A stretch of DNA of 64,000 bases, taken from contig CM060990.1 of the NCBI GenBank assembly GCA_030765065.1, positions 661,490,618 through 661,554,617 of the forward strand, read 5' to 3'. The stretch comes from Deroplatys truncata. Its lineage: Eukaryota > Arthropoda > Insecta > Mantodea > Mantidae. The notes beneath the pieces were generated by a model. It made no database searches, was not told the origin of the DNA, and saw nothing but the letters and a program-made list of their open reading frames with translations. Numbering within the stretch: position 1 is the stretch's first letter; each line of letters starts with the position of its first letter. Below, one piece after another: positions 27,336 to 53,177 of this stretch. The translations under genes and the position numbers were made by a program.

Positions 27336-30300
27336 TCAATCATTCACTGTCGCGTCATTAATTTCACACTATCTCTTACTTAATGTGATATAATTCAACT
27401 ATTCATTGTCACTTCTTAATGCGATCCAGTTGAACTGTACCCTGTCACTTGGTTAATGCGATCCAGATCAACTATTCGCTGTCACTTCGTTAATGCCATT
27501 TAGTTATACTATTCACTACCACCTCGTTAATATGATCTAATCGAACTATTCATTGCCACCTCGTTAATACAATGCAGTTCAAATATTTAATTTCATTTCG
27601 TTAATAGGATTTTGTTCTAATATTCGCTGTCACTTCGTTAATACCATCCATTTTTACTATCCGCAGACACATCGTTAATATGATCGCATTCAATACACAC
27701 TACCAGTTGGTTAATACTATCTAATTCAACTACTCGCTGTCATTTCGTTAATACCATCTAATTCAACTACTCGCTGTCATTTCGTTAATACCAACTAATT
27801 CAACTACTTGCTGTCACTTCGTTAATATTATCTAGTTCAGCTATTCACTCCCACTTCGTTTATACCATCTAATTCAACTATTTGCTGTCACTTCGCCAAT
27901 ACCATCTAATTTAACTATTTGCTGTCACTTCGTCAATACCATCTGATTCAACTATTCACTGTCATTTCCTTAATACCATCTAATTCAACTATTTGCTGTC
28001 ACTTCGTTAAAACCACCTAATTCAACTATTCACTGTCACTTCGACAATACCATCTAATTCAACTATTTGCTGTCACTTCGTTAATACCACCTAATTCAAC
28101 TATTCACTGAAACTTCGTGAATTCGATCTAGCTCAACTATACACCGTTACTTCGCTAATACCATCTAGCTCAACTATTCAAATTCACTTAGTTAATCCTA
28201 TTTACTTCAAATATTAACTGTTACCTCGTTAATATGATATAGTTCAACTATTCACTTTCACTTCGTTAATACCATCTGGTTCAACTATTCACTGTCACTT
28301 CGTTAATAACATCTAGTTCAACTATTCAGTCACTTTTTTAATATCATCTAGTTCAACTATTCACTGTCACTTCGCTAATACCATCTAATTCAACTGTTTA
28401 CTCTCACTTCGTTAATATCGCCTATTTTAACTATTCACCCTCACTTCGTAAATTAGACCTAGTTCAAATATACACCGTTAATTCGTTGATACCATCTAGT
28501 TCAACTATTCACTGTCACTTCGTTAATTCCATTTAGTTCAACTATTCATTATCACTTCGTTAATACCATCTGGTTCAACTATTCTGTACCATTTCGTTAA
28601 TACCATCTAATTCAACTGTTTACTCTCACTTCGTTAATACCATCTAATTCAACTATTCACACTCTAAAGCTTAACTATTCCCTGGTACTTCGTAAATGCG
28701 ATCTAGTTCAACTATTCATTGGCACTTCAGTACGATCTAACTGTCTATGCCCTAATGTAATTTAGTTCAATTATTCACTTTGACCCTAGTCGAGTCTTAC
28801 TCTCATAGATAATGCGATTTAGTTAATGCATTTACTGTCGCGTCACTGATTTGTACCTATCTCTCCCTTAATGTGATTTAGTTCAACCAATTACTGCCAA
28901 GTTAATAATTTCTATATTTCTCTTAATTAATGTTATCTATCTCGAATAATTATTGTCAAGTCCTAATTTCTCACTCCCTTTCTTAATGTTTTTAGTTCCA
29001 CTATGCACTGTCAATTATTCACTTGTACGAGGTTAGCGCAATCTAGTTCAAATATTCACTGTCACGTTATAAATTTTCATCATGTCTTCCTTAATGTGAT
29101 ATAGCGCATCCGTTCATTGCCAAGACCCTAATATCTTATTATCTCATTCTTAATGCTATTAGTTCAACAATTCAATGTAACGTCACTAAATTTACACTAT
29201 CTATTCCTTCAAGTGATGTAGTTCAACCATTCACTGATACGTCACCAATTTCTCACTAATTCTTTCTTAATGTGATATAGCTCAACTATTCACTGTCACT
29301 TCGTTATCGCAATCCAGAACAACTAATTGCTGTCACGTCGATAATGCTATTTAGTTCAACTATTCACTGTCACTTCGTTAATACCATTCAGTTTAACTAC
29401 TCTGTCTCACTCCGATAATACCATCTAGTTCAACTGTTCATTGTCACTTCATTAATTCGATGTAGTTCAACTATTCACTATCACCACGATAACACAATCG
29501 TGCTTAAATATTCACTTTCACTTTGTTAATCCTATCTAGTTCAACTATTCACTGTCACATCGTTAATACAGTTTAATGCACCTATTCACTGTCACTTCAA
29601 TACCATCCGATTCAACTACTTGCTATCGCTTTGTTAATAGGATCTAGTTCTGCTATTCGCAGTCACTTCGTTAATACTATCTCATTCAATACACACTGTC
29701 AATTGGTTAATACCATCTAATTCAACTATTCGCTGTCACTTCTTTAATACGAACTGATTTAACTATTCATTCTCACTTGGTTAATACCATCTAATTCAAC
29801 TTTTCGATTTCACCGCGTTTATACTATCTAATTCAACTATTCACTCTCACTTCGTTAATATCACCTATTTTAACCATTCACCGTCACTTCGTAAATTCGA
29901 CCTAGTTCAAATCTACGCCGTTACTTCGTCAATACCATCTTAATCAATTATTCTGTCTCACTTCGTTAATACCATCTAGTTCAACTGTTCACTGTCACTT
30001 CGTTAATTCGATTTAGTTCAACTATTCGGTATCACCACGTTAATACAATTTTGCTCAAATATTCACTTTCACTTTGCTAATCCTATCTAGTTCAACTATT
30101 CTCTGTCACTTTGTTAATACGTTATAGTTCAACTATTCACTCTCAGTTCGTTAATACCATCTAATTCAAATATTCGCTGTCACTTCGAAAATACCATCTA
30201 ATTCAACTATTCGCTGTCACTTTGTTAATACCATCTAATTCAACTATATGCTGTCACTTCGTTAATACCATCTAATTCAAGTACTTGCTATCGTTTTGTT

Positions 30301-32084
30301 AATAGGATCTAGTTCAACTACTCGCTGTCACTTCGTTAATATGATCTCATTCAATATACACTGTCAGTTGGTTAATACCATCTAATTCAACTATTCACTC
30401 TCACTTCGGTAATTCGATCTAGTTAAACAATAGACCGTTACATCGTTAATACGATCTAGTTTAACTATTCACTGCTATCTCATTAATACCATTTAACACA
30501 ACTATTTAATTTCACTTCGGTAATCCTATCTAGTTCAAAGATTCACCATTACATCGTTAATATGATATAGTTAAACTACTCACTGTCACTTGGTAAATAC
30601 AATCCAGTTCAACTATTTGGTGTCACTTCGTTAATACCATCTAGTTAAACCATACATTGTCCCTTTGTTAATACAATCTAGTTCAACTATTCACTGTCAC
30701 CTCGTTAATACAATCTAGCTCACATATACACTGTCACTTTGTTAATACGATGCAGTTCAACTATTCACTGTTACTTCGTTAATACCATCTAATTCAACTA
30801 TTTTCCTTCACTTCGTTAGTACGATCTACTTCAACTATTCACTGTCACTTCGTTAATACGATCTAGTTCAACTATTCACTGTCACTTCGTTAATACGATC
30901 TAGTTCAACTATTCACTGTCACTTCGTTAATACGATCTAGTTCAACTATTCACTGTCACTTCGTTAATACGATCTAGTTCAACTATTCACTGTCACTTCG
31001 TTAATACGATCTAGTTCAACTATTCACTGTCACTTCGTTAATACGATCTAGATCAACTATTTACTGTCACTTCGTTAATACGATCTATTTCAACTATTCA
31101 CTGTCACTTCGTTAATACGATCTAGTTCAACTATTCACTGTGACTACGTTAATACGATCTAGTTCAATTATTCACTGTGACTTTGTTAATGCGATCTAGT
31201 TCAACTGTTCACTGCCACTTCGTTAATACGATCTAGTTCAATTATACACTGTCACTTCGTTAATACGATGTAGTTTAACTATTCACTGTTACTTCGTTAA
31301 TACCATCTAATTCAACTATTCACTGTTACTTCCTTAATACCATCTAATTAAATTATTCAAGGCCACTTCGTTAATACGATCTAGTTCAACCGGTTGCTTT
31401 CACCTTGTTATTACGATTGAATTCAACTGTTTATCGTCACTTCGTTAATAGATACCGTCTAATTCAACTGTTCACTGTCACATCGTCAATAGCATACGAT
31501 TAAACTACATGCTATCACTTCGTTAAGACGATCTAGTTCTACTATTCGCTGTCACTTCTTTAATATGATCTCATTCAATATACGCTGCCACTTGGTTAAA
31601 ACCATCTAATTCAACTATTCGCTGTCACCTTCTTAACACCATCTAACTCAAATATTCACTTTCACTTGGTTAATACCAGATAGTTCAACTACTCATTGTC
31701 ACTACGTTAATATGATAATAGTTCAACCATTCACTGGTACTTTGTTAGTGTGCTGTATTTGAACTATTCACTGTCAGATAACTAAGTTCTCCGTTTCACT
31801 TCGTTAGTGCTATTTAGTTCAACTATTAACCGTTACGTCATTAATTTCTATATTTTCCTTAATATGATATAGCTCAATTATGCACTGGTACTTCGTAAAT
31901 GCGGTCTAGTTCAGCTATTGATTGGTGGTGCAATACGATCTCACGGTCTTTGCCCTAATGTGAATTATTTCAATTATTCACTTTATCCTAGTAGTTTCTT
32001 ACCACCTTCGTTAATGCGATTTAGTTAAACCATTCACTGTCACGTCACTAATTTCTCACTATCTCTACCTTAATGTGATATAGC
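27336..32084. repeat. Higher-order repeat copy 5 (4749 bp)
   Basis: Base-for-base match to copy 4 over nearly its full length. A CA pair is lost at about 28328 (ATTCAGTCAC against ATTCACAGTCAC); copy 4 has its own 2-bp loss elsewhere, so both end up 4749 bp. Near-identity of two 4.7-kb units points to recent amplification or gene conversion. Confidence 0.92.
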
Positions 32085-32140
32085 TCAATCATTCACTGTC
32101 GCGTCATTAATTTCACACTATCTCTTACTTAATGTGATAT

Positions 32141-32152
32141 AATTCAACTATT
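32141..32152. other. Deletion junction within the higher-order repeat
   Basis: The sequence passes from the unit equivalent to 22643 (copy 4) directly to the unit equivalent to 23233, with AATTCAACTATT common to both. The missing 590 bp is close to sixteen 37-bp units (592). This is the expected product of exchange between out-of-step monomers. Confidence 0.85.
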
Positions 32153-33697
32153 TGCTGTCACTTCGTTAAAACCACCTAATTCAACTATTCACTGTCACTT
32201 CGACAATACCATCTAATTCAACTATTTGCTGTCACTTCGTTAATACCACCTAATTCAACTATTCACTGAAACTTCGTGAATTCGATCTAGCTCAACTATA
32301 CACCGTTACTTCGCTAATACCATCTAGCTCAACTATTCAAATTCACTTAGTTAATCCTATCTACTTCAAATATTAACTGTTACCTCGTTAATATGATATA
32401 GTTCAACTATTCACTTTCACTTCGTTAATACCATCTGGTTCAACTATTCACTGTCACTTCGTTAATAACATCTAGTTCAACTATTCACAGTCACTTTTTT
32501 AATATCATCTAGTTCAACTATTCACTGTCACTTCGCTAATACCATCTAATTCAACTGTTTACTCTCACTTCGTTAATATCGCCTATTTTAACTATTCACC
32601 CTCACTTCGTAAATTAGACCTAGTTCAAATATACACCGTTAATTCGTTGATACCATCTAGTTCAACTATTCACTGTCACTTCGTTAATTCCATTTAGTTC
32701 AACTATTCATTATCACTTCGTTAATACCATCTGGTTCAACTATTCTGTACCATTTCGTTAATACCATCTAATTCAACTGTTTACTCTCACTTCGTTAATA
32801 CCATCTAATTCAACTATTCACACTCTAAAGCTTAACTAATCCCTGGTACTTCGTAAATGCGATCTAGTTCAACTATTCATTGGTACTTCAGTACGATCTA
32901 ACTGTCTATGCCCTAATGTAATTTAGTTCAATTATTCACTTTGACCCTAGTCGAGTCTTACTCTCATAGATAATGCGATTTAGTTAATGCATTTACTGTC
33001 GCATCACTGATTTGTACCTATCTCTCCCTTAATGTGATTTAGTTCAACCAATTACTGCCAAGTTAATAATTTCTATATTTCTCTTAATTAATGTTATCTA
33101 TCTCGAATAATTATTGTCAAGTCCTAATTTCTCACTCCCTTTCTTAATGTTTTTAGTTCCACTATGCACTGTCAATTATTCACTTGTACTAGGTTAGCGC
33201 AATCTAGTTCAAATATTCACTGTCACGTTATAAATTTTCATCATGTCTTCCTTAATGTGATATAGCGCATCCGTTCATTGCCAAGACCCTAATTTCTTAC
33301 TATCTCATTCTTAATGCTATTAGTTCAACAATTCTCTGTAACGTCACTAAATTTACACTATCTATTCCTTCATGTGATGTAGTTCAACCATTCACTGATA
33401 CGTCACCAATTTCTCACTAATTCTTTCTTAATGTGATATAGCTCAACTATTCACTGTCACTTCGTTATCGCAATCCAGAACAACTAATTGCTGTCACGTC
33501 GTTAATGCTATTTAGTTCAACTATTCACTGTCACTTCGTTAATACCATTCAGTTCAACTACTCTGTCTCACTCCGATAATACCATCTAGTTCAACTGTTC
33601 ACTGTCACTTCGTTAATTCGATGTAGTTCAACTATTCACTATCACCACGATAACACAATCTTGCTTAAATATTCACTTTCACTTTGTTAATCCTATC

Positions 33698-34871
33698 TAG
33701 TTCAACTATTCACTGTCACATCGTTAATACAGTTTAATGCAACTATTCACTGTCATTCAATACCATCCGATTCAACTACTTCCTATCGCTTTGTTAATAG
33801 GATCTAGTTCTGCTATTCGCAGTCACTTCGTTAATACTATCTCATTCAATGCACACTGTCAATGGGTTAATACCATCTAATTCAACTATTCGCTGTCACT
33901 TCTTTAATACGAACAGATTTAACTATTCACTCTCACTTCGTTAATACCATCTAATTCAACTTTTCGTTTTCACCGCGTTTATACTGTCTAATTCAAATAC
34001 TCACACTCACTTCGTTAATATCACCTATTTTAACCATTCACCGTCACTTTGTAAATTCGACCTAGTTCAAATCTGCACCGTTACTTCGTCAATACCATCT
34101 TAATCAACTATTCACTATCACTTTGTTAATACCATCTAGTTCAACTATTCTGTCTCACTTCGTTAATACCATCTAGTTCAACTGTTCACTGTCACTTCGT
34201 TAATTCGATTTAGTTCAACTATTCAGTATCACCACGTTAATACAATTTTGCTCAAATATTCATTTTCACTTTGCTAATCCCATGTAGTTCAACTATTCAC
34301 TGTCACATCGTTAATACAGTTTAATGCAACTATTCACTGTCATTCAATACCATCCGATTCAACTACTTCCTATCGCTTTGTTAATAGGATCTAGTTCTGC
34401 TATTCGCAGTCACTTCGTTAATACTATCTCATTCAATGCACACTGTCAATGGGTTAATACCATCTAATTCAACTATTCGCTGTCACTTCTTTAATACGAA
34501 CAGATTTAACTATTCACTCTCACTTCGTTAATACCATCTAATTCAACTTTTCGTTTTCACCGCGTTTATACTGTCTAATTCAAATACTCACACTCACTTC
34601 GTTAATATCACCTATTTTAACCATTCACCGTCACTTTGTAAATTCGACCTAGTTCAAATCTGCACCGTTACTTCGTCAATACCATCTTAATCAACTATTC
34701 ACTATCACTTTGTTAATACCATCTAGTTCAACTATTCTGTCTCACTTCGTTAATACCATCTAGTTCAACTGTTCACTGTCACTTCGTTAATTCGATTTAG
34801 TTCAACTATTCAGTATCACCACGTTAATACAATTTTGCTCAAATATTCATTTTCACTTTGCTAATCCCATC
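33698..34871. repeat. Tandem duplication of a 587-bp segment
   Basis: Copy one is 33698-34284 and copy two is 34285-34871; both begin TAGTTCAACTATTCACTGTC and I see no difference within them. The third start, at 34872, leaves into different sequence (TAGTTCAACTCTTCTGTC). Copies 2-5 of the HOR have this segment once, so it arose in this copy and is recent. Confidence 0.9.
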
Positions 34872-36779
34872 TAGTTCAACTCTTCTGTCATTTTGTTAAT
34901 ACGTTATAGTTCAACTATTCACTGTCAGTTCATTAATACCATCTAATTCAACTATTCGCTGTCACTTCGATAATACCATCTAATTCAACTATTCGCTGTC
35001 ACTTCGTTAATACCATCTAATTCAAGTACTTGCTATCGTTTTGTTAATAGGATCTAGTTCTACTACTCGCTGTCACTTCGTTAATATGATCTCATTCAAT
35101 ATACACTCTCAGTTGGTGAAAATACCATCTAAATCATCTATTCACTCTCACATCGGTAATTCGATCTAGTTAAACAATAGACCGTTACATCGTTAATACG
35201 ATCTAGTTTAACTATTCACTGCTATCTCATTAATACCATTTAACACAACTATTTAATTTCACTTCATTAATCCTATCTAGTTCAAAGATTCACCATTACA
35301 GCGTTAATATGAAATAGTTAAACTACTCACTGTCACTTTGTAAATACAATCCATTTCAACTATTTGGTGTCACTTCGTTAATACCATCTAGTTAAACTAT
35401 ACACTGTCCCTTTGTTAATACAATCTAGTTCAACTATTCACTGTCACCTCGTTAATACAATCTAACTCACATATACACTGTCACTTTGTTAATACGATGT
35501 AGTTCAACTATTCACTGTTACTTCGTCAATACCATCTAATTCAACTATTTGCTTTCACTTCGTTAATACGATCTAGTTCAACTATTCACTGTCACTTCGT
35601 TAATACGATCTAGTTCAAGTATTCACTGTCACTTCGTTAATACGATCTAGTTCAAGTATTCACTGTCACTTCGTTATTACGATCTAGTTCAAGTATTCAC
35701 TGTCACTTCGTTATTACGATCTAGTTCAACTATTTACTGTCACTTCCTTTATACGATCTATTTCAAATATTTACTTTCACTTCGTTAATACGATCTATTT
35801 CAACTATTCACTGTCACTTCGTTAATACGATCTAGTTCAACTATTCACTGTGACTTCGTTAATACGATCTAGTTCAATTATTCACTGTGACTTCGTTAAT
35901 ACGATCTAGTTCAATTATTCACTGTGACTTTGTTAATACGATCTAGTTCAACTGTTCACTGCCACTTCGTTAATACGATCTAGTTCAATTATACACTGTC
36001 ACTTCGTTAATACGATGTAGTTCAACTATTCACTGTTACATCGTTAATACCATCTAATTAAACTATTCACTGTTACTTCCTTAATACCATCTAATTAAAT
36101 TAATCAAGGCCACTTCGTTAATACGATCTAGTTTTACCGGTTGCTTTCACCTTGTTATTACGATTGAATTCAACTATTTATCGTCACTTCGTTAATAGAT
36201 ACCGTCTAATTCAACTGTTCACTGTCACATCGTCAATACCATACGATTAAACTACATGCTATCACGTCGTTAAGACGATCTAGTTCTACTATTCGCTGTC
36301 ACTTCTTTAATATGATCTCATTCCATATACACTGCCACTTGGTTAAAACCATCTAATTCAACTATTCGCTGTCACCTTCTTAACACCATGTAACTCAAAT
36401 ATTCACTTTCACTTGGTTAATACCAGATAGTTCAACTACTCATTGTCACTACGTTAATATGATAATAGTTCAACCATTCACTGGTATTTTGTTAGTGTGC
36501 TGTATTTGAACTATTCACTGTCAGATCACTAAGTTCTCCATTTCACTTCGTTAGTGCTATTTAGTTCAACTATTAACCGTTACGTCATTAATTTCTATAT
36601 TTTCCTTAATATGATATAGCTTAATTATGCACTGGTACTTCGTAAATGCGGTCTAGTTCAGCTATTCATTGGTAGTGCAATACGATCTCACGGTCTTTGC
36701 CCTAATGTGAATTATTTCAATTATTCACTTTATCCTAGTAGTTTCTTACTCCCTTCGTTAATGCGATTTAGTTAAACCA

Positions 36780-37490
36780 CTTACTGTCGCATCACTGATT
36801 TCTCCCGATCACTCCCTTAATGTGATTTAGTTCAACCAAGGCCCTAATTTCTCAATCTCTCTTTAATTAATGTGATCTAGTTCGACTGTGCATTGCCATT
36901 TCTCTAATTTCTCACTCTCTTTCCTAATGTTTTTAGTTCCACTATGCACTATCAATTATTCACTTGAACTAGAATGTGCTAACCTAGTACATCTATTCAC
37001 CGTCACGTCATTAATTTTCAGCACGTCTTCCTTAATGTGATATAGTGCCTCCATTCATTGCCTAGTCCTAGTTTCTCAATCTCTCTTATTTATGGCGATA
37101 TATTTCAAACATTCACTTCCGCATCACTAATTTTTCACTGTCTCATCATTTATTTCTATCTAGCTCTTCAGAAATGTTATACATCTCAACCATTCATTGT
37201 CACGTGCCTAACGTTTCACTATCTCTTCCTTAATGTGATGTAGTTCTATCATCCACTGTCACGTCACTAAATTCTCATATTTGTTCCTCAATGTGATGTA
37301 GTTCAACCATTCACTGTCACGTCACTAAATTCTCATGTTTGTTCCTCAATGTGATGTAGTTCAACCATTCACTGTCACGTCACTAAATTCTCATGTTTGT
37401 TCCTCAATGTGATGTAGTTCTGTCATCTACTGTCACGTCACTAATTTCTCACTATCTCTTCCATAATGCGATATAGCTCAACAATTCTGA
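36780..37490. repeat. Type B block with a local 58-bp tandem repeat
   Basis: Monomers of the longer form fill this block. At 37261, 37319 and 37377 the word ACGTCACTAAATTCTCAT (or ACGTCACTAAATTCTCA) recurs exactly 58 bp apart, with GTTCCTCAATGTGATGTAGTTC in each, a local amplification of a one-base-shorter B unit. This marks the change between the two array domains. Confidence 0.85.
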
Positions 37491-39485
37491 CTCACTTCGT
37501 TAACACCATCTAGTTTAACTGTTTACTGTCACTTTAATACCATCTAATTTAACTATCCACTGTCACTTCGTAAATACAGTCTAATGAAACTATTCGCTGT
37601 GACTTCGTAAATACAGTCTAATGCAACTATTCGCTGTCACTTCAAGACCAAACGAATCAACTACTCGCTATTGCTTCGAGAATAGGATCCAGTTCTACTA
37701 TTCGCTGTCACTTAGTTAATATGACATCATTCAATATACGCTATCACTTGGTTAATACCATCTAATTCAACTATTCTCTGTCATTTCGCTAATATGATTT
37801 TATTCACCTACTCACTCTCGTTTCGTTAATACCACTTAATTCAACTATTCACTGTCACTTCATTAATACCACTTAATTCAACTATTCAATGTCACTTCGT
37901 TAATCATATCTAGTTCAAAGATTCACTGTTACTTCGTTAATACGATCTAGTTCTACTACTCACTGTCACTTCGTTAATACTATCTAGTTCAACTATTCAC
38001 TGTCACTTCGTTAATACGATCTAGTTCAACTATTCACTGTCACTTCGTTAATACGATCTAGTTCAACTATTCACTGTCACCTCGGTAATACGATCTAGTT
38101 CAACTATTAACTGTCACCTCGTTAATACGATACAGTTCAACTATTAACTGTCACCTCGTTAATACGATCTAGTTCAACTATTCACTGTCACTTCGTTAAT
38201 ACGATCTAGTTCAACTATTCACTGTCACTTCGTTAATACGATCTAGTTCATCTATTCACTGTCACTTCGTTAATACAATGTAGTTCAACTATTCACTGTC
38301 ACCTCGTTAATACGATCTAGTTCAAATATTCACTGTCACTTCGTTAATACAATCTTATGCAACTATTCACTGTCACTTCGATAATACCATCCAGTTCAAC
38401 TATTCACTCACACTTCGTTAATACCATCCAGTTCAACTATTCACTGTCACATCGTTAATCCTATCTAGTTCAAAGATTTACTGCTACTTCGTTACTATGA
38501 TATAGTTCAACTATTCACTGTCACTTCGTTAATACGATCGAGTTCAACTATTCACTGTCACTTCGATAATACGATATAGTTCAACTATTCACTGTCACCT
38601 CATTTATACCATTTATTTCAACTATTCACTGTCACTTCGTTAATACTATTTTATTCAACTATTTCCTGTAACTTCGTTAATACCATCTAGTTCAACTATT
38701 CCCTGTAACTTCCTTAAAACCATCTAGTTCAACTATTCCCTGTCACTTCGTTAATACCACCTATTTCACCTATTCACTATCAATTCGTTAATACCATATT
38801 ATGCAACTATTAGCTGTCACTTCGTTAATACCATCCAGTTCAACCATTCACTGTCACTTCGTTAATACGATCTAGTTCAACTATTCACTGTCACTTCGTT
38901 AATACGATCTAGTTCAACTATTCACTGTCACTTCGTTAATACGATCTAGTTCAACTATTCACTGTCACTTCGTTAATACGATGCAGTCCATCTATTCACT
39001 GTCACTTCGTTAATACGATGTAGTCCATCTATTCACTGTCACTTCGTTAATACGATGTAGTTCAACTATTCAATGTCACTTCGTTAATACGATCTAGTTC
39101 AACTATTTACTGTCACATCGTTAATACGATCTAGTTCAACTATTTACTGTCACTTCGTTAATACGATCTAGTTCAACTATTGTGGGTCACTTCGTTATGC
39201 CACCGAATTCAACTCTTCACTGTCACTTAAATACCATCTAATTCAACTATTCATCGTCATTCCGTTAATTCGATTTATTTCAACTGTACACTGTCATTTC
39301 GTGAGTATAGTGTAGTTCAACTATTCACTGTCAGTTTCTTGATACGATTTAATTCAATTATTCACGGTCACCTCATTTATACCATTTAGTTCAACTATTC
39401 ACTGTCACTTCGTTAATACGGTCTAGTTCAGCTATTCACTGTCACCTCGTTAATACGATCTAGTTTAACTATTCCCTGTCACTTA

Positions 39486-39550
39486 GTAAATAGGTGAACT
39501 AGATGGTATTAACGATCAATTCGTTAATACCATCTAGTTAAAATATTCAC
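39486..39550. repeat. Inverted-monomer hairpin, copy 1
   Basis: AACTAGATGGTATTAACGA (39497-39515) is the exact reverse complement of TCGTTAATACCATCTAGTT (39521-39539), with the 5-base loop TCAAT. An outer arm GTAAATA/TATTCAC pairs with one mismatch across a 4-by-4 internal loop. It looks like one monomer piece inverted next to its normal copy. Confidence 0.92.
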
Positions 39551-40667
39551 TATCACTTCGTTAATACCATTTTATTCAACCATTCACAGTCACTTCGTTA
39601 ACACCAGCTAGTTCAACCATTCACTATTACTTCGTTAATACCATCTAGTTCAACTATTCACTATCATTTCGTTAATACCACCTTATGCAACTATTCACTG
39701 TCACTTCGTTAATACCATTCAGTTCAACTATTCACCGCCACCTCGTTAATACGATCTAGTTCAACTATTCACTGTCACCTCGTTAATACGATGTAGTTCA
39801 ACTATTCACAGTCACCTTGTTAATATGTAGTTCAACTATTCACTGTTACTTCGTTAATACGATTTAGTTCAACTATTCAATCTCACCTCGCTAATCCTAT
39901 CTAGTTCAACTATTCACTGTTACGTAGTTAATACGATCTAATTTCAACTATTCACTGTCACATCGTTAATCCTATTTGGTTCAAAGATTCACTGTCACTT
40001 CGTTAATACGATGTAGTTCAACTATTCACTGCCACTTCGTTAATACGATCTAGTTCAACTATTCACTGTCACCTCGTTAATCCGATCTAGTTCAACTACT
40101 CACTGTCACCTCGTTAATCCGATCTAGTTCAACTACTCACTGTCGCTTCGTTAATACGATCCAGTTCAACTATTCACTGTCACTTCGTTAATACGATGTA
40201 GTTCAATTATTCACTGTCACCTCATTTATACCATTTAGTTCAACTATTCGCTATCACTTCGTTAATACCATCTTATTCAACTATTCGCTGTCACTTCGTT
40301 AATACCATCTTATTCAATTATTCCCTGTAACTTCGTTAATACCATCTTATTCAATTATTCCCTGTAACTTCGTTAATACCATTAAGTTCAACTATTCCCT
40401 GTCACTTCGTTATAACCATCTATTTAACCTCTTCACTATCAATTCGTTAATACCATCTTATGCAACTATTCACTGTCACTTCCTTAAAACGATCTAGTTC
40501 ATCTATTCACTGTCACTTCGTTAATACGATATAGTTCAACTATTCAATCTCACTTCGTTAATACGATCTAGTTCAACTATTCACTGTCACTTAGTTAATA
40601 CGGTCTAGTTCAGCTATCAACTGTCACCTCGTTAATACGATCTAGTTTAACTATTCCCTGTCACTTA

Positions 40668-40732
40668 GTGAATAGGTGAAATAGATGGTATTAACGATCA
40701 ATTCGTTAATACCATCTAGTTAAAATATTCAC
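40668..40732. repeat. Inverted-monomer hairpin, copy 2
   Basis: Same 65-bp structure as at 39486. The outer arm GTGAATA/TATTCAC (40668-40674 and 40726-40732) pairs fully. The inner arm has one mismatch (AAATAGATGG instead of AACTAGATGG). Confidence 0.92.
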
Positions 40733-42544
40733 TATCACTTCGTTAATACCATCTTATTCAACCATTCACAGTCACCTCGTTAACACCAGCTAGTTCAACC
40801 ATTCACTGTTACTTCGTTAATACCATCTAGTTCAGCTATGCACTATCACATCGTTAATATCATTTTATGCAACTATTCACTGTCACTTCGTTTATACCAT
40901 CTAGTTCAACTATTCACTGTCACCTCGTTAATACGATGTAGTTCAACTATTCACTGTTACTTAGTTAATACGATCTATTTCAACTGTGCACTGTCACTTC
41001 GTTAATACGATGTAGTTCAACTATTCACTCTCACCTCGTTAATCCTATCTAGTTCAGCTATTCACTGTCACTTCGTTAATACGATGTAGTTCATCTATTC
41101 ACTGTCGCTTCGTTTATACGATCTAGTACAACTATTCACTGTCACTTCGTTAATACGATTTAGTTCAACTATTCAATCTCACCTCGTTAATCCTATCTAG
41201 TTCAACTATTCAGTGTCACTTCGTGAATACGATCTAGTTCAACTATTCGTTGTCACTTCGTTAATACGATCTAGTTCAACTATTCATTGTCACTTCGTTA
41301 ATCCTATTTAGTTCAACTATTCACTGTTACTTAGTTAATATGATCTATTTCAACTGTGCACTGTCACTTCGATAATACGATGTAGTTCAACTATTCACTG
41401 TCACTTCGTTAATACGATCTCGTTCAACTATTCACTGTCACTTCGCTAATACGAAACTATTCACCGTTACCTCATTTTTACCATTTAGTTCAACTATTCA
41501 CTATCACTTCGTTAATACCATCTTATTCAACTATTCACTGTCACTTCGTTAATACCATCTTATACAACTATTCCCTATAACTTCATTAATACCATCTAGT
41601 TCATCTATTCCCTGTCACTTCGTTAATACCAATTATTTCACCTATTCCGTATCAATTCGTTAATACTATCTTATGCAACTATTCACTGTCACTTTGTTAA
41701 TACCATCCAGTTCAAATATTCACTGTCACTTTCTTAATCCTATTTTGTTCAACTATTCACTGTCACTTCGTTAATACGATCTATTTCAACTATTCACTGT
41801 CACTTCGTTAATACGATCTGGTTCAACTATTCACTGTCACTTCGTTAATACGATCTAGTTCAACTATTCATTGTCACCTCGTTAATCCTATCTAGTTCAA
41901 CTATTCAATGTCACTTCGTTAATACGATGTAGCTCATCTATTCGCTGCATCTTCGTTAATACGACGCAGTCCATCTATTCACTGTCACCTCGTTAATACG
42001 ATGTAGTTCAACTATTCACTGTCACTTCGTTAATACGATGTAGTTCAACTATTCACTGTCACTTCGTTAATACGATCTAGTTCAACTATTTACTGTCACT
42101 TCGTTAATACGATCTAGTTCAACTATATTACTGTCACTTCGTTAATACGATCTAGTTCAACTATATTACTGTCACTTCGTTAATACGATCTAGTTCAACT
42201 ATTGTGTGTCACTTCGTTATGCCACCGAATTCAAATCTTCACTGTCACTTAAATACCATCTAATTCAACTATTCATGGTCATTTCGTTAATTCGATTTAT
42301 TTCAACTGTACACTGTCAATTCGTGAGTATAGTCTAGTTCAACTATTCACTTTCAGTTTCTTGATACGATTTAATTAAACTATTCACTGTTACCTCATTT
42401 CTACCATTTAGTTCAACTATTCAATATCACTTCGTTAATACCATCTTATTGAACTATTCACTGTCACTTCGTTAATACCATCTTATTGAACTATTCACTG
42501 TCACTTCGTTAATACCATGTAGTTCAACTATTCCCTGTCACTTA

Positions 42545-42609
42545 GTGAATAGGTGAACTAGATGGTATTAACGATCAATTCGTTAATACCATCTAGTTAA
42601 AATATTTAC
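42545..42609. repeat. Inverted-monomer hairpin, copy 3
   Basis: Inner arms of 19 bp pair perfectly around TCAAT. The outer arm is GTGAATA against TATTTAC, giving one G-T style mismatch. Confidence 0.92.
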
Positions 42610-44271
42610 TATCACTTCGTTAATACCATATTATTCAACCACACATTGTCACCTCGTTAACACCAGCTAGTGCAACCATTCACTATTACTTTGTTAATAC
42701 TATCTAGTTCAACTATTCACTATCACTTCGTCAATACCATCTTATGCAACTATTCACTGTCACTTCGTTAATACCATCCAGTTCAACTACTCACTGTCAC
42801 TTCTTTAATACGATCTAGTTCAACTATTAACTGTCACCTCGTTAATACGATGTAGTTCAACTATTCACTGTCACTTCGTTAATCCTATCTAGTTCAACTA
42901 TTCACTGTTACGTAGTTAATACGATCTAATTTCAACTATTCACTGTCACTTCGTTAATACGATGTAGTTCACTGTCACTTCGTTAATACGATCTAGTTCA
43001 ACTATTCACTGTCACTTCGTTAATACGATCTAGTTCAACTACTCACTGTCACTTCGTTAATACGATCTAGTTCAACTACTCACTGTCACTTCGTTAATAC
43101 GATCTAGTTCAACTATTCACTGTCACTTCGTTAATACGATCTAGTTGAACTATCCACTGTCACTTCGTTAATACGATGTAGTTCATTTATTCACTCTTAC
43201 TTGGTTATTACGATATAGTCTATCAAATCACTGTTACTTGTTATTACGATGTAGTCCATCTATTCACTGTTACTTCGTTTATATGATATAGTTCAACTAT
43301 TCACTGTTGCTTAGCTAATACCATCTAATTCAATTATTCACGGCCACTTCGTTAATACGATCTGGTTCAACCAGTTGCTGTAGCTTTGTTATTACGATTG
43401 AATTCAACTATTCACTATCACTTCGTTAACACCATCTTATTCAAATATTCACTGTCACTTCGTTAATACTATCTTATTCAACTATCCCCTGTAACTTCGC
43501 TAATACCATCTAGTTCAACTGTTCGCTGTAACTTCGTTAATACCATCTACTTCAAATATTCCCGGTCACTTCGTTAATACCATCTATTTCACCTATTCAC
43601 TATCAATTCGTTAATACCATCTTATGCAACTATTCACTGTCACTTCGTTAATACCATCCAGATCAACTATTCACTGTCACTTCGTTATCACTATCTAGTT
43701 CAACTATTCACTGTCACTTCGTTAATACGATCTATTTCAACTATTCACCGTCACTTCGTTAATACGATGCAGTCCATCTATTCACTGTCACTTCGTTAAT
43801 ACGATGTAGGTCAACTATTCACTGTCACTTCGTTAATACGATCTAGTTCAACTATTTACTGTCACTTCGTTAATACGATCTAGTTCAACTATTTACTGTC
43901 ACTTCGTTAATACGATCTAGTTCAACTATTTACTGCCACTTCGTTAATACGATCTAGTTCAACTGTTTACTGTCACTTCGTTATGCCACCGAATTCAACA
44001 CTTCACTGTCACTTAAATACCATCTAATTCAAGTATTCATGATCATTTCCTTAATTCGATTTATTTCAACTGTACACTGTCAATTCGTGAGTATAGTCTA
44101 GTTCAACTATTCACTTCCAGTTTGTTGATACGGTTTAATTCAACTATTCACGGTCACCTCATTTATACCATTTAGTTCAACTATTCACTATCACTTCGTT
44201 AATACCATCTGATTCAACTATTCACTGTCACTTCGTTAATACCATCTAGTTCAACTATTCCCTGTCACTTA

Positions 44272-44336
44272 GTGAATAGGTGAACTAGATGGTATTAACG
44301 ATCAATTCGTTAATACCATCTAGTTAAAATATTCAC
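44272..44336. repeat. Inverted-monomer hairpin, copy 4
   Basis: Inner 19-bp arms and the outer 7-bp arms (GTGAATA/TATTCAC) both pair perfectly around the TCAAT loop. This is the best preserved copy and probably closest to the original rearrangement. Confidence 0.92.
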
Positions 44337-47300
44337 TATCACTTCCTTAATACTATCTTATTCAACTATTCCCTGTAACTTCGTTAATACCATCTAGTTC
44401 AACTATTCCCTGTCACTTCGTTAATACGATCTATTTCACCTATTCACTATCAATTCGTTAATACCATCTTATGCAACTATTCACTGTCACTTCGTTAATA
44501 CTATCCAGATCAACTGTTCACTGTCACTTTGTTATACCTATCTAGTTCAACTATTCACTGTCACTTCGTTAATACGATCTATTTCAACTATTCACCGTCA
44601 CTTCGTTAATACGATGCAGTCCATCTATTCACTGTCACTTCGTTAATACGATGCAGTCAATCTATTCACTGTCACTTCTTTAATACGATGTAGTTCAACT
44701 ATTCACTGTCACTTCGTTAATACGATATAGTTCAACTATTCACTGTCACTTCGTTAATACGATGTAGTTCATGTATTCACTGTCACTTCGTTAATACGAT
44801 GTAGTTCAACTATTCACTGTCACTTCGTTAACACCATTTAGTTCAACCATTCACTATCACTTCCTTAATACCATCTAGTTCAACTATTCACTGTCACTTC
44901 GTTAATACGATCTATTTCAACTATTCACTGTCACTTCGTTAATACCATCCAGTTTAAATATTCACTGTCACCTCGATAATACGATGTTGTTCAACTATTC
45001 ACTGTTACTTAGTTAATACGATTTATTTCAACTATTCACTTTCGCTTCGTTAATACGATCTAGTTCAACTATTCACTGTCGCTTCGTTATTACGATCTAG
45101 TTCAACTATTCACTGTCGCTTCGTTAATACGATCTATGTCAACTATTCACTGTCACCTCGTTAATCCTATCTAGTTCATCTATTCACTGTCACTTCGTTA
45201 ATACGATCTAGTTCAACTATTCACTGTCGTTTCGTTAATACGATCTAGTTCAACTATTCACTGTCACCTCGTTAATACGTTGTAGTTCAACTGTTCACTG
45301 TCACTTCGTTAATACGTTGTAGTTCAACTGTTCACTGTCACCTCGTTAATCCTATCTTGTTCAACAATTCACTGTCACTTCGTTAATACGATCTAGTTGA
45401 ACTATTCACTGTCACTTCGTTAATACGATCTAGTTGAACTTTTCACTGTCACTTCGTTAATACGATCTAGTTGAACTATTCACTGTCACTTCGTTAATAC
45501 GATCTAGTTGAACTATTCACTGTCACTTCGTTAATACGATGTAGTTCATATATTCACTCTTAGTTGGATATTACGATATAGTCTATCTAATCAGTGTTAC
45601 TTGTTTTTATGAAGTAGTCCATCTATTCACTGTTACTTCGTTTATATGATATAGTTCAACTATTCACTGTTGCTTAGCTAATACCATCTAATTCAATTAT
45701 TCACGGCCAATTCGTTAATACGATCTGGTTCAACCAGTTGCTGTAGCTTTGTTATTACGATTGAATTCAACTATTCACTATCACTTCGTTAATACCATCT
45801 TATTCAAATATTCACTGTCACTTCGTTAATACTATCTTATTCAACTATCCCCTGTAACTTCGTTAATACCATCTAGTTCAACTATTCCCTGTAACTTCGT
45901 TAATACCATCTAGTTCAATATTCCCTGTCACTTCGTTAATACCATCTATTTCACCTATTCACTGTCACTTCGTTAATACCATCCAGTTCAACTATTTACT
46001 GTCACTTCGTTATCACTATCTAGTTCAGCTATTCACTGTCACTTCGTTAATACGATGCAGTCAATCTATTCACCGTCACTTCGTTAATACGATGCAGTCC
46101 ATCTATTCTCTGTCACTTCGTTAATACGATGCAGTCAATCTATTCACTGTCACTTCGTTAATACGATGCAGTCAATCTATTCACTGTCACTTCGTTAATA
46201 CGATGTAGTTCAACTATTCACAGTCACTTCTTTAACACGATGCAGTCTATCTATTCACTGTCACTTCTTTAATACGATGTAGTCCATCTATTCACTGTCA
46301 CTTCGTTAATACGATGTAGTTCAACTATTTACTGTCACTTCGTTAATACGATCTAGTTCAACTATTTACTGTAACTTCGTTAATACGATCTAGTTCAACT
46401 GTTTACTGTAGCTTCGTTAATACGATCTAGTTCAACTATTTACTGTCACTTCGTTAATACGATCTAGTTCAACTATTTACTGTCACTTCGTTAATACGAT
46501 CTAGTAAAACTATTTACTGTCACTTCGTTATGCCACCGAATTCAACACTTCACTGTCACTTAAATACCATCGTATTCAACTATTCATGGTCATTTCCTTA
46601 ATTCGATTTATTTCAACTGTACACTGTCAATTCGTGAGTATAGTCTAGTTCAACTATTCACTGTCAGTTTGTTGATACGATTTAATTCAACTATTCACGG
46701 TCACCTTGTTTATACCATTTAGTGGAACTATTCACTATCACTTCGTTAATACCATCTTATTCATCTATTCAATGTCACTTCGTTAATACCATCTATTTCA
46801 CCTATTTACTATCAATTCGTTAATACCATCTTATGCAACTATTCACTGTCACTTCGTTAATACCATCCAGATCAACTATTCACTGTCACTTCGTTAATAC
46901 GATCTATTTCAACTATTCACCGTCACTTCGTTAATACGATGCAGTCCATCTATTCACTTTCACTTCGTTAATACGATGCAGTCCATCTATTCACTGTCAC
47001 TTCGTTAATACGATGCAGTCAATCTATTCACTGTCACTTCGTTAATACGATGTAGTTCAACTATTTACTGTCACTTCGTTAATACGATCTAGTTCAACTA
47101 TTCACTGTCACTTCGTTAATACGATGCAGTCCATCTATTCACTGTCACTTCGTTAATACAATGTAGTTCAACTATTCACTGTCATTTCGTTAACACCATC
47201 TAGTTCAACCATTCACTATCACTTCGTTAATACGATCTATTTCAACTATTCACTGTCACTTCGTTAATACCATCCAGTTTAACTATTCACTGTCACTTCG

Positions 47301-47365
47301 TTAATACGATGTAGTTCAACTATTCACTGTCACCTCGTTAATACGATGTAGTTCAACTATTCACT

Positions 47366-48320
47366 GTTACTTAGTTAATACGATCTATTTCAACTATTCA
47401 CTGTCGCTTCTTCAATACGATCTAGTTCAACTATTCACTGTCTCTTCGTTAATACGATCTAGTTCAGCTATTCACTGTCGTTTCGTTAATACGATCTAGT
47501 TCAACTATTCACTGTCACCTCGTTAATACGATGTAATTCAACTATTCACTGTCACCTCGTTAATACGATGTAGTTCAGAGCTATTCACTGTCACCTCGTT
47601 AATACGATGTAGTTCAGCTATTCACTGTCACCTCGTTAATACGATGTATTTCAACTATTCACTGTCACTTCGTTAATCCTATCTAGTTCAACTATTCACT
47701 GTCACCTCGTTAATACGATGTAGTTCAACTATTCACTGTTACTTAGTTAATACGATCTATTTCAACTATTCACTGTCGCTTCTTCAATACGATCTAGTTC
47801 AACTATTCACTATCACTTCGTTAATACGATCTAGTTCAGCTATTCACTGTCACCTCGTTAATAGGATGTAGTTCAACTATTCACTGTTACTTAGTTAATA
47901 CGATCTATTTCAACTATTCACTGTCGCTTCTTCAATACGATCTAGTTCAACTATTCACTGTCTCTTCGTTAATACGATCTAGTTCAGCTATTCACTGTCG
48001 TTTCGTTAATAAGATCTAGTTCAACTATTCACTGTCACCTCGTTAATACGATGTAATTCAACTATTCACTGTCACCTCGTTAATACGATGTAGTTCAGCT
48101 ATTCACTGTCACCTCGTTAATACGATGTAGTTCAACTATTCACTGTCACTTCGTTAATCCTATCTAGTTCAACTATTCACTGTCACCTCGTTAATACGAT
48201 GTAGTTCAACTATTCACTGTTACTTAGTTAATACGATCTATTTCAACTATTCACTGTCGCTTCTTCAATACGATCTAGTTCAACTATTCACTATCACTTC
48301 GTTAATACGATCTAGTTCAA
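47366..48320. repeat. Recent nested tandem duplications in exact 37-bp register
   Basis: The rare word CGCTTCTTCAATACG occurs at 47405, 47777, 47925 and 48258. Spacings are 372, 148 and 333 bp, that is ten units plus 2, four units, and nine units. The extra 2 bp is the AG insertion in GTTCAGAGCTATTC at about 47575. A block of about fourteen units was thus copied recently and then altered by further in-register exchange. Confidence 0.88.
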
Positions 48321-48840
48321 CTATTCACTGTCACTTCGTTAATACGATCTAGTTCAACTATTCACTGTCACTTCGTTAATACGATCTAGTTGAACTATTC
48401 ACTGTCACTTCGTTAATACGATGTAGTTCATCTATTCACTCTTACTTGGTTATTACGATATAGTCTATACAATCACTGTTACTTGTTATTACGATGTAGT
48501 CCATCTATTCACTCTTACTTCGTTTATATGATATAGTTCAACTATTCACTGTTGCTTAGCTAATACCATCTAATTCAATTATTCACGGCCACTTCGTTAA
48601 GACGATCTGGTTCAACCAGTTGCTGTACTTTTATTATTACGTTTGAATTCAACTATTTACTGTCACTTCGTTAATACCATCTAATTCAACTGTTCACAGT
48701 CACATCGTCAATAGCATCCGATTCAACTGCTTGCTATCACTTCGCTAATACGATGTAGTTCTACTATTCGCTGTCACGTCGTTATTATGATATCATTCAA
48801 TATACAGTGTCACTTGATTAATGCGAGCTAGTTTAACCAT

Positions 48841-49800
48841 TCACTGGTACTTTGTTAGTGTGCTCTATTTGAGCTATTCCTGTCAGATCACTAAGTTCTC
48901 ACTTTGATTTCGTTAGTGTTATTTAGTTCAACTATTAACAGTTACGTCATTAATTTCCAACTATCTCTTCCTTAATATGATATAGCTTAACTATTACTTC
49001 TACTTTGTAATTGCGGTCTATTTCAACTATTCATTGGTACTGCAATACGATCTCACGGTCTGTGCCCTAATGTGATTTACTTCAATTATTCACTTTGAAT
49101 CTACTAATTTCTTACTCTCTTCGTTAATGCGATTTAGTGAAACCATTTACTGTCGCAACACTGATTTCTCACTATCTTCCCTTAATGTGATTTAGTTCAA
49201 CCATTCACTGCCAAGTCCCTAATTTCTCAATCTCTCTTACTTAATGTGATCTAGTTCGATTATGCATTGCCAAGTCTCTAATTTCTCACTGTCTTTCTTA
49301 ATGCTTTTAGTTCCACTATGCACTGTCAATTATTTGCTTGTACTAGGTTAGCGCATTCTATTTCTTCTATTCACTGTCACGTCATTAATTTTCAGCATGC
49401 CTTCCTTAATTTGATATAGTGCATCCATTCATTGCCAAGTCCTAATTTTTCAATCTCTCTTATTTATAGCAATATAATTCAACAATTCACTTTCGCGTCA
49501 CTAATTTTTCACTATCTCTTCCTTAATGTAGTGTAGTTCTATCAACCACTGCCGTGTCACTAAATTCTCATATTTCTTACTTAATGTGATGTAGTTCAAC
49601 CATTAACTCTCACGTCACTAATTTCTCAATATCTCTTGCTTAATATGATATAGTTCAACCATTCACTGTCACGTCACTAATTTTTCACCATCTGTTCCCC
49701 CATGTGATGTATGTCAACCATTCATTGTCACGTCAGTAATTTGTCACTAACTCCTCCTTAATGTGATATACCTCAACTATTCGCTGTCACTTCATTAATG
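48841..49800. repeat. Right-hand type B block
   Basis: The 59-bp form returns here, with CGGTCTGTGCCCTAATGTG at 49056 matching the closing B block of the HOR copies (for example 36691). It is more diverged from them than they are from each other, so it is an older relative of that cassette. Confidence 0.85.
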
Positions 49801-50707
49801 CTATTTAGTTCAACTATTCACTGGCACTTCGTTAATACCATCTAGTTCAACTATTCTGACTCACTTCGTTAATACTTTCTAGTTCAACTGTTTACTGTCA
49901 CTTTATTAATTTCATCTTATTCAACTATACTGTCACTTCATGAATTCGATCTATTTCAACTATTGACTATCACCACGTTAATACAATCTTGCTCAAATAT
50001 TCACTTACACTTCGTTAATCCTATCTAGTTCAAATAATCACTGTCGCTTTGTTAATACGATATAGTTCAACTATTCACTGTCACTTCGTCAATACCACCT
50101 AATTCAACTATTCGCTGTCACTTCGTTAATACAGTCTAATGCAACGATTCGCTGTCACTTCAAGACCATCCGATTCAACTACTCGCTATTGCTTCGTTAA
50201 TAGGATCCAGTTCTACTATTCGATGTCACTTCGTTAATATGATCTCATTCAATATACACTGTCACTTGGTTAATACCATCTAATTCAACTATTCGCTTTC
50301 GCTTTCTTAATACGATATTATTCACCTATTCACTCTCACTTCGTCAATACCATCTAATTCAACTATTCGCTGTCACTTCGTTAATACGATATTATTCACC
50401 TATTCACTCTCACTTCGTAAATACCACCTAATTCAACTATTCACTGTCACTTTGTTAATTCAATTTAGTTCAACAATACACCGTTACTTCGTTAATACTA
50501 TCTAGTTCAACTATTCACTGTTACCTCGTTAATACCATTTAACTCAACTATTCAATTTCACCTCGTTAATCCTATCTAGTTCAAAGATTCACTGTTATCG
50601 TTACTATGATATAGTTCAACTATTCACTGCCATTTCGTTAATGCCATCTAAATCAACCATTCACCGTCATTTCCTTAATTCGATTTATTTCAACTATACA
50701 CTGTCAC
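49801..50707. repeat. Right edge of the satellite: diverged 37-bp monomers
   Basis: Units of the CCATCTAATTC, CAGTCTAATGC and CGATCTAGTTC kinds follow each other with many point changes. The pattern stops cleanly after CACTATACACTGTCAC-like sequence at 50707 and is replaced by unrelated DNA. Confidence 0.85.
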
Positions 50708-50737
50708 TGCATTGGAAGGATAATCAGCTAAAGAAAG

Positions 50738-52069: not shown

Positions 52070-52487
52070 AGAAAATATGTGTTACACTCACAATACATTC
52101 TCTACTCTTGTACAAACTGTTTTTACAAACGCTTATTCTCCAACTACTTCCTATTAATCGAGATATCGAGATGTTAAACTTATTGCTAATTTTCTTGTAG
52201 GTGCCAGGAGAATATGGTAGGTTTTAAGCAATAGTAAAATATTTTAAGAGCTGGTTGCTATGTGGAGCATTACATTCTCGTTGCATGTCCAGGGCATAAA
52301 AAAAAGAACGAATTCCCATTTGAGAAAATGTATAGGTATTGCAAAATTCAAACAAATAACTATGAATATTTCGGAAATGCTAGAATCCACAAAAAATTGT
52401 GTCTATTTCCTACGGTTTACCAGTTATGCAAAAGCAATTCAGAATGAAGAGGACTTTTGGGGACATTCCAAGAAAATTCAAGATATA

Positions 52488-52931: not shown

Positions 52932-53160
52932 TACATTTAATTTTTCATAAAAATATCTTATAATATGATATTTTAATCGAAATCGTTAGTTATTTTTAAG
53001 AAAATAAAAATTTTCAAAAGATGTTCTATGTAAAGAATAGCCTGGGGTGGTGAAATTTTCTTGAAAATCTTCCGTGTCGCATCTTTAAAAAATACTGAAC
53101 CTAAATACGAAGTTTGGTATTCATCCGACTTTTCGTTTTTGAGTTACGCTGTTCACAGAC

Positions 53161-53177
53161 GCACACACACACGCACC
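53161..53177. repeat. Short (CA)n microsatellite inside repeat copy A
   Basis: GCACACACACACGCACC; the matching place in copy C carries a longer GT/CT run on the opposite strand (56163-56215), while copy B lacks it. Confidence 0.85.

What the first reader, a model, noticed from the sequence alone, without database searches (positions are those of the whole stretch)
39486..44336. Four copies of a hairpin made by a partly inverted monomer
At 39486, 40668, 42545 and 44272 a 65-bp module has 19-bp inverted arms (perfect in three of four), a TCAAT loop, and outer 7-bp arms across a symmetric 4-by-4 internal loop. In an array where every other unit points the same way, this is the only orientation switch I see. 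It was then copied together with its surroundings. A strong cruciform at intervals of 1.2-1.9 kb could act as a break or exchange hotspot, or mark a loop in a transcript; function is inference.
Basis: partly seen in the sequence, partly recalled or inferred. Interest (0 to 1): 0.75.

Follow-up and report, generated by a model that had tools for sequence, protein, structure and literature searches.

The report
Tiny flipped segment copied in satellite
In a long tandem-repeat DNA array of a large, probably insect genome, a 32-base piece of one repeat unit was once flipped in place, which by itself creates a hairpin with the unit next door, and the array later copied it to four places; this is a well-preserved example of a known kind of mutation, with no sign of a function.

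Summary
The four hairpins are real. Each is a precise in-place inversion of 32 bp (30 without the ambiguous T/A edge) inside one 37-bp monomer type ("P"). P persists un-inverted at seven nearby places; copy 2 is the exact reverse complement of P at 43571-43602. Rare flanking tags exactly 32 bp apart occur nine times: five direct, four flipped. The hairpin is thus a by-product: a flipped unit faces forward neighbours on both sides, and copy 4 prefers its left one in DNA folding. Shared breakpoints and a private right neighbour point to one event, spread by the array's own duplications. It is not the only orientation switch: an independent 25-bp microinversion lies at 36966-36990. A flank-matched scan finds only these two events; with the four masked, reverse-only and complement-only controls give none. 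Four related arrays (16.0 kb) have none. Hairpins are no closer to homology switch points than other monomers (P = 0.78; weak test). A genome search with the 80-nt module lists four matches at 99-100%, all here. Best reading: microinversion by replication template switching (or break repair), then satellite amplification. New member of a known kind; no evidence of function.

The parts
39484..39515 (-). Copy 1 of the flipped 32-bp P segment (2 mismatches to the reverse complement of P at 43571-43602)
40666..40697 (-). Copy 2 of the flipped segment: exact reverse complement (32/32) of P at 43571-43602; its 'imperfect' arm is the base seen in the direct P units
42543..42574 (-). Copy 3 of the flipped segment (1 mismatch to the reverse complement of P)
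44270..44301 (-). Copy 4 of the flipped segment (1 mismatch); identical to copy 3
39521..39557 (+). Right-neighbour monomer of copy 1 with the private variant AGTTAAAATATT; supplies the right hairpin arm
   Evidence: AGTTAAAATATT occurs exactly at 4 places in the window, all next to the hairpins
40703..40739 (+). Right-neighbour monomer of copy 2 (same private variant)
42580..42616 (+). Right-neighbour monomer of copy 3 (same private variant, 1 further change)
44307..44343 (+). Right-neighbour monomer of copy 4 (same private variant)
38748..38779 (+). Un-inverted P segment, both tags, 1 mismatch to P at 43571
40407..40438 (+). Un-inverted P segment, both tags, 4 mismatches
41620..41651 (+). 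Un-inverted P segment, both tags, 4 mismatches
43571..43602 (+). Un-inverted P segment taken as reference, both tags; identical to the reverse complement of copy 2
44418..44449 (+). Un-inverted P segment, both tags, 1 mismatch
45933..45964 (+). Un-inverted P segment, left tag only (right side is the ordinary TCACTTCG), 1 mismatch
46780..46811 (+). Un-inverted P segment, right tag only, 1 mismatch
36966..36990 (-). Second, independent in-place microinversion (25 bp, one copy): 23/25 reverse-complement identity to paralogues at 14997, 19527, 33186 and 49340, 22/25 to those at 11250, 24278 and 29025
9726..50708 (+). Satellite array with a 37-bp period that carries the hairpins (Tandem Repeats Finder rows 9726-48857, about 1055 copies, and 49773-50708)

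Best explanation
A single microinversion flipped 32 bp of one P-type monomer in place, leaving length and the 37-bp register unchanged. Because the other units point forward, the flipped unit is automatically an inverted repeat of both neighbours, so a hairpin or cruciform appears as a by-product. The most likely mechanism is replication template switching: the polymerase jumps to the complementary strand about 32 nt ahead, copies it backwards and jumps back. Repair of a double-strand break is the close alternative, listed as a rival that shares everything but this step. The flipped unit was then carried to four places by the array's ordinary duplications and unequal exchanges. Shown by sequence: the in-place flip, its source type, shared breakpoints, shared flanks. 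Inferred: template switching as the physical mechanism (about 0.6), a single event, no function. The confidence given is for the flip and its amplification.
For: (1) The left tag TTCCC[T/G]GTCACT and the right tag TCAATTCG occur exactly 32 bp apart nine times in 9.7-50.7 kb: five with the segment direct, four flipped. (2) Copy 2 equals the reverse complement of P at 43571, 32/32; over the four copies the right neighbour as donor gives 28-29/32 and the left 26-29/32. (3) A scan for places where flanks match but the middle matches only when reverse-complemented gave 262 hits, and the rows visible in the cut output involve these four sites. With the four masked it gave 9 hits, all falling in the seven position bins listed, each of which involves 36966; reverse-only and complement-only controls gave 0 and 0. 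(4) All four copies share both breakpoints and a right neighbour with AGTTAAAATATT, exact only at these four places. (5) Flanking monomers are alike among the four sites. (6) 32 bp lies within the 17-33 nt range of 59 definite human-chimpanzee microinversions, 45 of them exact (PMC8755829, Results part 1 and Discussion part 1 read). (7) P has imperfect inverted ends, 7 of 9 matched, reached by 0.17% of the array's 32-mers (arm length chosen after looking).
Against: PMC8755829 found inverted repeats next to all 59 of its microinversions; here there is none outside the edges (5-6 matches in 15 for the six P contexts compared) and the inner-edge one is imperfect. The un-inverted P unit folds to 0 kcal/mol at 43567-43606 and -2.2 at 44414-44453, the latter a short local stem, so no stem-loop spanning the segment guided the flip. 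For copies 3 and 4 alone two non-P monomers (10745, 39632) fit as well as P at 43571 (31/32); for copy 1 the best is P at 46780 (31/32). Three of four copies carry a base that perfects the arm, while seven of seven direct P units and copy 2 carry the other, so an extra change is needed. P is a loose type: two of its seven members differ from the reference at 4 of 32 bases. The flanks are mosaic and give no clean tree, so 'one event' rests on shared breakpoints and neighbour. The scan allows no indels and tried lengths up to 45 only, so other inversions could be missed.
Confidence: 0.82

Rival explanations
1. Same flip and same later copying, but made by break repair: two breaks about 32 bp apart with the fragment rejoined the wrong way round, or microhomology-mediated break-induced replication. 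(Overlaps with the best explanation in all but this step.)
For: Junctions show only a 1-bp ambiguity (T/A) and no good inverted repeat; PMC8755829 proposes microhomology-mediated break-induced replication for microinversions with short or imperfect inverted repeats (abstract; Discussion part 1).
Against: A free 32-bp fragment would have to be held and rejoined without loss of bases; otherwise nothing here separates this from template switching.
Confidence: 0.28
2. Fold-back copying: the polymerase turned round and copied an adjacent monomer backwards, making the hairpin directly rather than flipping a P monomer in place.
For: Template switching is known to create perfect hairpins this way (PMC8794818, abstract and passages); three copies have perfect 19-bp arms.
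Against: The flipped segment matches the right neighbour at 28-29/32 and the left at 26-29/32, but P at 43571 at 30-32/32; the replaced unit has P's own flanking tags and the 32-bp spacing is unchanged.
Confidence: 0.08
3. The hairpin is a selected element: a cruciform that promotes breaks or exchange, or a structured part of a satellite transcript.
For: Four copies; strong predicted folds of the 67-nt module (DNA -19.0 to -23.3, RNA -31.0 to -37.4 kcal/mol on the + strand); three copies have the perfected arm.
Against: No enrichment of homology switch points at hairpins (weak test); copy 2 keeps a mismatch and the outer arm is imperfect in two copies; preferred partner differs between copies; a P monomer becomes a hairpin just by flipping; four related arrays have none; spacing is irregular (1182, 1877, 1727 bp).
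Confidence: 0.06
4. Assembly or sequencing artefact.
For: No raw reads could be examined here.
Against: Four copies in flanks that differ by substitutions plus an unrelated second flip; the contig is chromosome-scale (707 Mb).
Confidence: 0.03

Closest known systems
Definite microinversions, 17-33 nt, human versus chimpanzee (PMC8755829; abstract, Results part 1 and Discussion part 1 read)
   Same: In place, length kept, near-exact reverse complement; 32 and 25 bp are in the size range; the 25-bp event has near-perfect inverted ends (6 of 7).
   Different: The 32-bp event has only imperfect inner-edge inverted repeats, lies in a tandem array, makes a hairpin with both neighbours, and was multiplied to four copies.
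Template-switch mutations that create or mend hairpins (PMC8794818, PMC7954356: abstracts and passages); spacer inversion and arm homogenisation in yeast (PMC8604942: abstract only)
   Same: A reverse-complement copy yields a new stem; complete loop inversions are taken there as a sign of interstrand switching that turns sequence in place; the perfected arm in three copies resembles arm homogenisation.
   Different: Here the partner arm pre-existed as a tandem neighbour, and there are no ancestral or population data to order the events.
Macro-dyad symmetries of Tribolium satellite DNA (PMC13081366: abstract and passages)
   Same: Orientation change inside satellite arrays of an insect, with predicted hairpins at the inversion site.
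   Different: There inverted subarrays are several kb long and inversion sites are conserved over thousands of cases; here one 32-bp piece of one unit, at one locus.
Microinversion hotspots in birds (PMC3123225: abstract only)
   Same: More than one microinversion at a locus; no stem-loop linked to the events in those hotspots.
   Different: Non-coding loci compared between species, not a satellite array within one genome.

Membership tests
Definite microinversion (criteria of PMC8755829) | At least 15 nt, equal to the reverse complement of the homologous place with at most 1-2 differences | tested here: met
   32/32 (copy 2), 31/32 (copies 3, 4), 30/32 (copy 1) against P at 43571
Definite microinversion (criteria of PMC8755829) | In place: flanks and length unchanged | tested here: met
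   Rare left and right tags exactly 32 bp apart in 5 direct and 4 flipped cases
[quoted passage not shown]
   32-bp event: imperfect 7/9 ends inside the segment, none outside. 25-bp event: 6/7 ends, and its un-inverted paralogue at 14992-15026 folds to -4.0 kcal/mol
Replication template-switch mutation | Reverse-complement copy of nearby sequence explained by four switch points | tested here: met
   Pattern fits an in-place switch; any clean inversion would fit as well, so this does not single the mechanism out
Replication template-switch mutation | Arises during DNA replication | not testable with these tools
   Needs de novo events or mutants
Macro-dyad satellite symmetry (Tribolium type) | Kilobase-long inverted subarrays meeting at conserved inversion sites | tested here: not met
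   The orientation scan of 7.5-50.7 kb gives reversed stretches of 31 bp (four), 20 bp (36964) and 4 bp only
Recombination or break hotspot | Exchange junctions cluster at the element | tested here: inconclusive
   No enrichment: mean 1.5 monomers to the nearest homology switch against 1.19 for all monomers, P = 0.78; four sites and a noisy painting
Known structured RNA family (Rfam 15) | Match at or above gathering score | tested here: not met
   0 matches in the whole window

The most novel reading that the evidence does not exclude
Satellite arrays act as incubators for template-switch microinversions: a flip in one unit at once creates a hairpin with its tandem neighbours, later copying across the hairpin perfects the arm (three of four copies carry the perfecting base), and ordinary array duplication multiplies the module, giving a stepwise route from head-to-tail satellites towards arrays with built-in dyad symmetry. 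Two independent microinversions in one 43-kb array hint at a raised rate; the 16.0 kb of related arrays with none is too little to tell.
Probability: 0.15. Interest if true: 0.55.

Novelty: new member of a known kind. Interest (0 to 1): 0.3.

Why it matters
It explains a striking hairpin without invoking a function, because in a tandem array a flipped unit must form one. It also shows that a satellite can keep the un-inverted siblings, so a microinversion's breakpoints and source can be read to the base within a single genome. If such events prove common, satellites would be a good place to measure template-switch inversion rates and to see how dyad-symmetric satellites begin.

Tried and rejected
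Hairpin as exchange hotspot: each monomer of 37.5-50.7 kb was painted with its best homologous offset and the distance from hairpins to switches measured; no enrichment. The painting is smoothed over 7 monomers and noisy, so this is weak evidence.

Arm correction after the flip: copy 2 has the base of the direct P units, copies 1, 3 and 4 the arm-perfecting one. Immediate flanks group copy 1 with copy 2, so either two corrections or one correction plus one reversal is needed; equal parsimony, left open. A P progenitor that already had the perfecting base would need one step, but none of the seven direct P units has it.

Donor other than P: the neighbours and every 32-mer of 7.6-50.7 kb were compared; P wins alone for copy 2 (32/32), P at 46780 is best for copy 1, and two non-P monomers tie with P at 43571 for copies 3 and 4.

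Raised microinversion rate: four arrays of the same family elsewhere in the genome (C16:632.9 Mb, C13, C28, C72; 16,020 bases as cut, a little flank included) gave 0 in-place inversions and 0 in both controls. The only reversed segments in their orientation scan were the first 30 and first 13 bases of two cut-outs, which I read as flank. The smaller motif copies fetched on C6, C7, C9, C10 and C14 were not scanned. At the rate of this array fewer than one event would be expected in 16 kb, so this neither supports nor refutes a raised rate.

A 20-mer reverse-strand scan without a flank requirement was uninformative, because ordinary units find the flipped copies as partners. A 26-base monomer pattern has no exact match in the viral and prokaryote contig collections.

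Literature: seven searches. In the titles and abstract openings listed I saw no report of a microinversion multiplied inside a satellite array; the library is open-access only and lists were capped. Papers opened: PMC8755829 (abstract, Results part 1 of 2, Discussion part 1 of 2); PMC7954356, PMC8794818, PMC13081366 (abstract and passages); PMC8604942, PMC3123225 (abstract).
Full report
Setting. The window lies in a 4.29-Gb assembly of 818 contigs, at C16:661,490,618-661,554,617. About 7.5-50.7 kb of it is a tandem array, mostly of a 37-bp unit (about 1055 copies in 9726-48857) with 59-bp relatives. Flanking DNA holds a Tc1-like transposase fragment (Pfam DDE_3) and a DUF4817 helix-turn-helix domain, so I read it as insect-like nuclear DNA.

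Observation. All four modules exist where stated. The 43-bp core (19-bp arms plus TCAAT) matches at four places with at most one mismatch, against a mean of 0.00 in 100 shuffles. The 67-nt modules fold as DNA to -19.0, -20.4, -19.8 and -23.3 kcal/mol (z -8.6 to -12.5) and as + strand RNA to -31.0, -31.8, -35.2 and -37.4. The outer 7-bp arm is perfect only in copies 2 and 4.

What it is. Reading both orientations of the unit along 7.5-50.7 kb, the reversed stretches are these four (31 bp each by that method), one of 20 bp at 36964 and one of 4 bp at 9394. Each of the four sits between two rare tags. The left tag TTCCC[T/G]GTCACT occurs 11 times in 9.7-50.7 kb; left tag, any 32 bases, then TCAATTCG occurs nine times, with the segment direct at five and flipped at four. 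TCAATTCG preceded by any two bases occurs 14 times: 6 direct P units, 4 hairpins, 4 others. The direct form 'P' is TCGTTAATACCATCTATTTCACCTATTCACTA at 43571. Copy 2 is its exact reverse complement; copies 3 and 4 differ by one base and copy 1 by two. Direct P units lie at 38748, 40407, 41620, 43571, 44418, 45933 and 46780. Five have both tags, 45933 only the left and 46780 only the right; four differ from the reference by one base and two by four. From 38.7 to 44.4 kb direct and flipped units alternate. Neither neighbour explains the flipped sequence as well (28-29/32 right, 26-29/32 left). So 32 bp were inverted in place; the first T and last A are ambiguous, hence 30-32 bp.

Flank-matched scan. 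I looked over pairs of array positions for places where flanks agree but the middle agrees only after reverse complementing (ungapped; lengths 16-36 and 10-43). The unmasked scan gave 262 hits, of which the visible rows involve the four sites. With those masked, nine hits remained, all in the seven listed position pairs, each involving 36966-36990; reverse-only and complement-only controls gave 0 and 0. That second event is GAACTAGAATGTGCTAACCTAGTAC against GTACTAGGTTAGCGCAATCTAGTTC in paralogues at 14997, 19527 and 33186 (23/25 after flipping). A genome search with 161 bp around it lists eight matches of 157-161 bp at 84-100% identity, all in this array (itself included), and shorter or weaker ones, of which one lies elsewhere, at C16:144.47 Mb, 79% over 74 bp.

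Why a hairpin. A flipped unit among forward units is by construction an inverted repeat of both neighbours. With 40, 111 or 222 bases of flank on each side, DNA folding pairs copies 1 and 2 mainly with the right neighbour (probability 0.51-0.996), gives copy 3 a mixture and copy 4 the left neighbour (0.93-0.98). In RNA folding copies 1 to 3 go mainly right (0.67-0.999), and copy 4 left with 40 or 111 bases but right with 222. The direct P unit folds to 0 kcal/mol at 43567-43606 and to -2.2 (a short local stem) at 44414-44453, whereas the un-inverted paralogue of the 36966 event has a stem across the segment (-4.0). So the 25-bp event fits a classical stem-loop inversion and the 32-bp event less well: its inverted ends are imperfect (7 of 9; 0.17% of array 32-mers do as well, arm length chosen afterwards), with none outside the edges.

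One event, then copying. All four copies share both breakpoints and a right neighbour with AGTTAAAATATT, exact only at these four places in the window. Copies 1 and 4 share about 17 monomers to the left (84-100% per 37-bp block) but little beyond one monomer to the right; copies 1 and 2 share about seven to the right and three to the left; copy 3 shares both sides with copy 1 apart from a local shift. Similarity of the six adjacent monomers exceeds that at random sets of four sites (P = 0.0002). The differing extents mean patchwork duplication, as expected in a satellite, not one block copied whole.

Arm-perfecting base. Seven of seven direct P units and copy 2 have the base that leaves one mismatch in the arm; copies 1, 3 and 4 have the base that makes it perfect. 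This resembles the arm correction known for template switching, but copy 2 groups with copy 1 in its nearest flanks, so either two corrections or a correction and a reversal are required.

Genome-wide. The 80-nt module has 59 matches, and every listed row lies within the window; four cover all 80 nt at 99-100% (the four copies), while three others cover all 80 nt at only 77% and are ordinary array. The tool scores only best candidates and skips very common words, so this is not proof of absence, and the pattern search meant to check it did not complete. The monomer family exists elsewhere: 352 forward and 179 reverse matches with up to 3 mismatches, 0 for the backwards control, only the first places listed. 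Four other arrays, 16.0 kb in all, contain no in-place inversion.

Mechanism. In-place, length-preserving, near-exact flips of 17-33 nt are an established mutation class (59 in human versus chimpanzee, PMC8755829), explained there by template switching at longer inverted repeats or by microhomology-mediated break-induced replication. I give template switching about 0.6 and break-based repair about 0.3. Neither is demonstrated by sequence alone. [quoted passage not shown] two are seen. This is rough inference: the divergence is assumed, duplication is not corrected for, and the rates come from another lineage.

Function. Nothing found supports one. Hairpins are not nearer to homology switch points than other monomers (weak test), no RNA family matches, arms are not kept perfect, and spacing is irregular. 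The finding is a base-exact example of a known mutation type amplified by a satellite.

Noticed in passing
36966-36990: Second in-place microinversion (25 bp, single copy) in a 59-bp-type stretch; its un-inverted paralogues have GTACTAG...CTAGTTC ends that can form a stem.
   Followed up: yes
about 10000-36000: A much larger higher-order repeat: the commonest offset between 400-bp stretches more than 95% identical is 4749 bp (also 9498, 4530, 4161, 3747).
   Followed up: partly
G000 C16:632.897-632.903 Mb (L018, L019), C13:5.97 Mb (L025), C28:0.59 Mb (L027), C72:1.33 Mb (L028): Related tandem arrays with 36-, 37-, 53-, 59- and 60-bp units of the same motif; no in-place inversion in them.
   Followed up: partly
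L021, L022, L023, L024, L026 near their centres (C6, C7, C9, C10, C14): One or a few copies of the satellite motif in non-array surroundings that look partly shared by eye; the satellite may have started inside a dispersed element.
   Followed up: no
1699-2894: Tc1-like element with 35-bp inverted ends (86% complementary) and transposase reading split over two frames.
   Followed up: no
52483-52936: Short element with long inverted ends (57 and 56 bp, 91% and 89% complementary, 229 nt between the inner arms), like a non-autonomous DNA transposon.
   Followed up: no
52077-56900: Several large inverted-repeat pairs (up to 182 nt) right of the array; the stretch about 56.0-56.9 kb has relatives of 78-94% in the fetched regions of C6, C7, C9, C16 and C72, so it is a dispersed repeat.
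   Followed up: no
42432-42505: Two identical adjacent monomers (recent single-unit duplication), three and two units left of hairpin copy 3.
   Followed up: no
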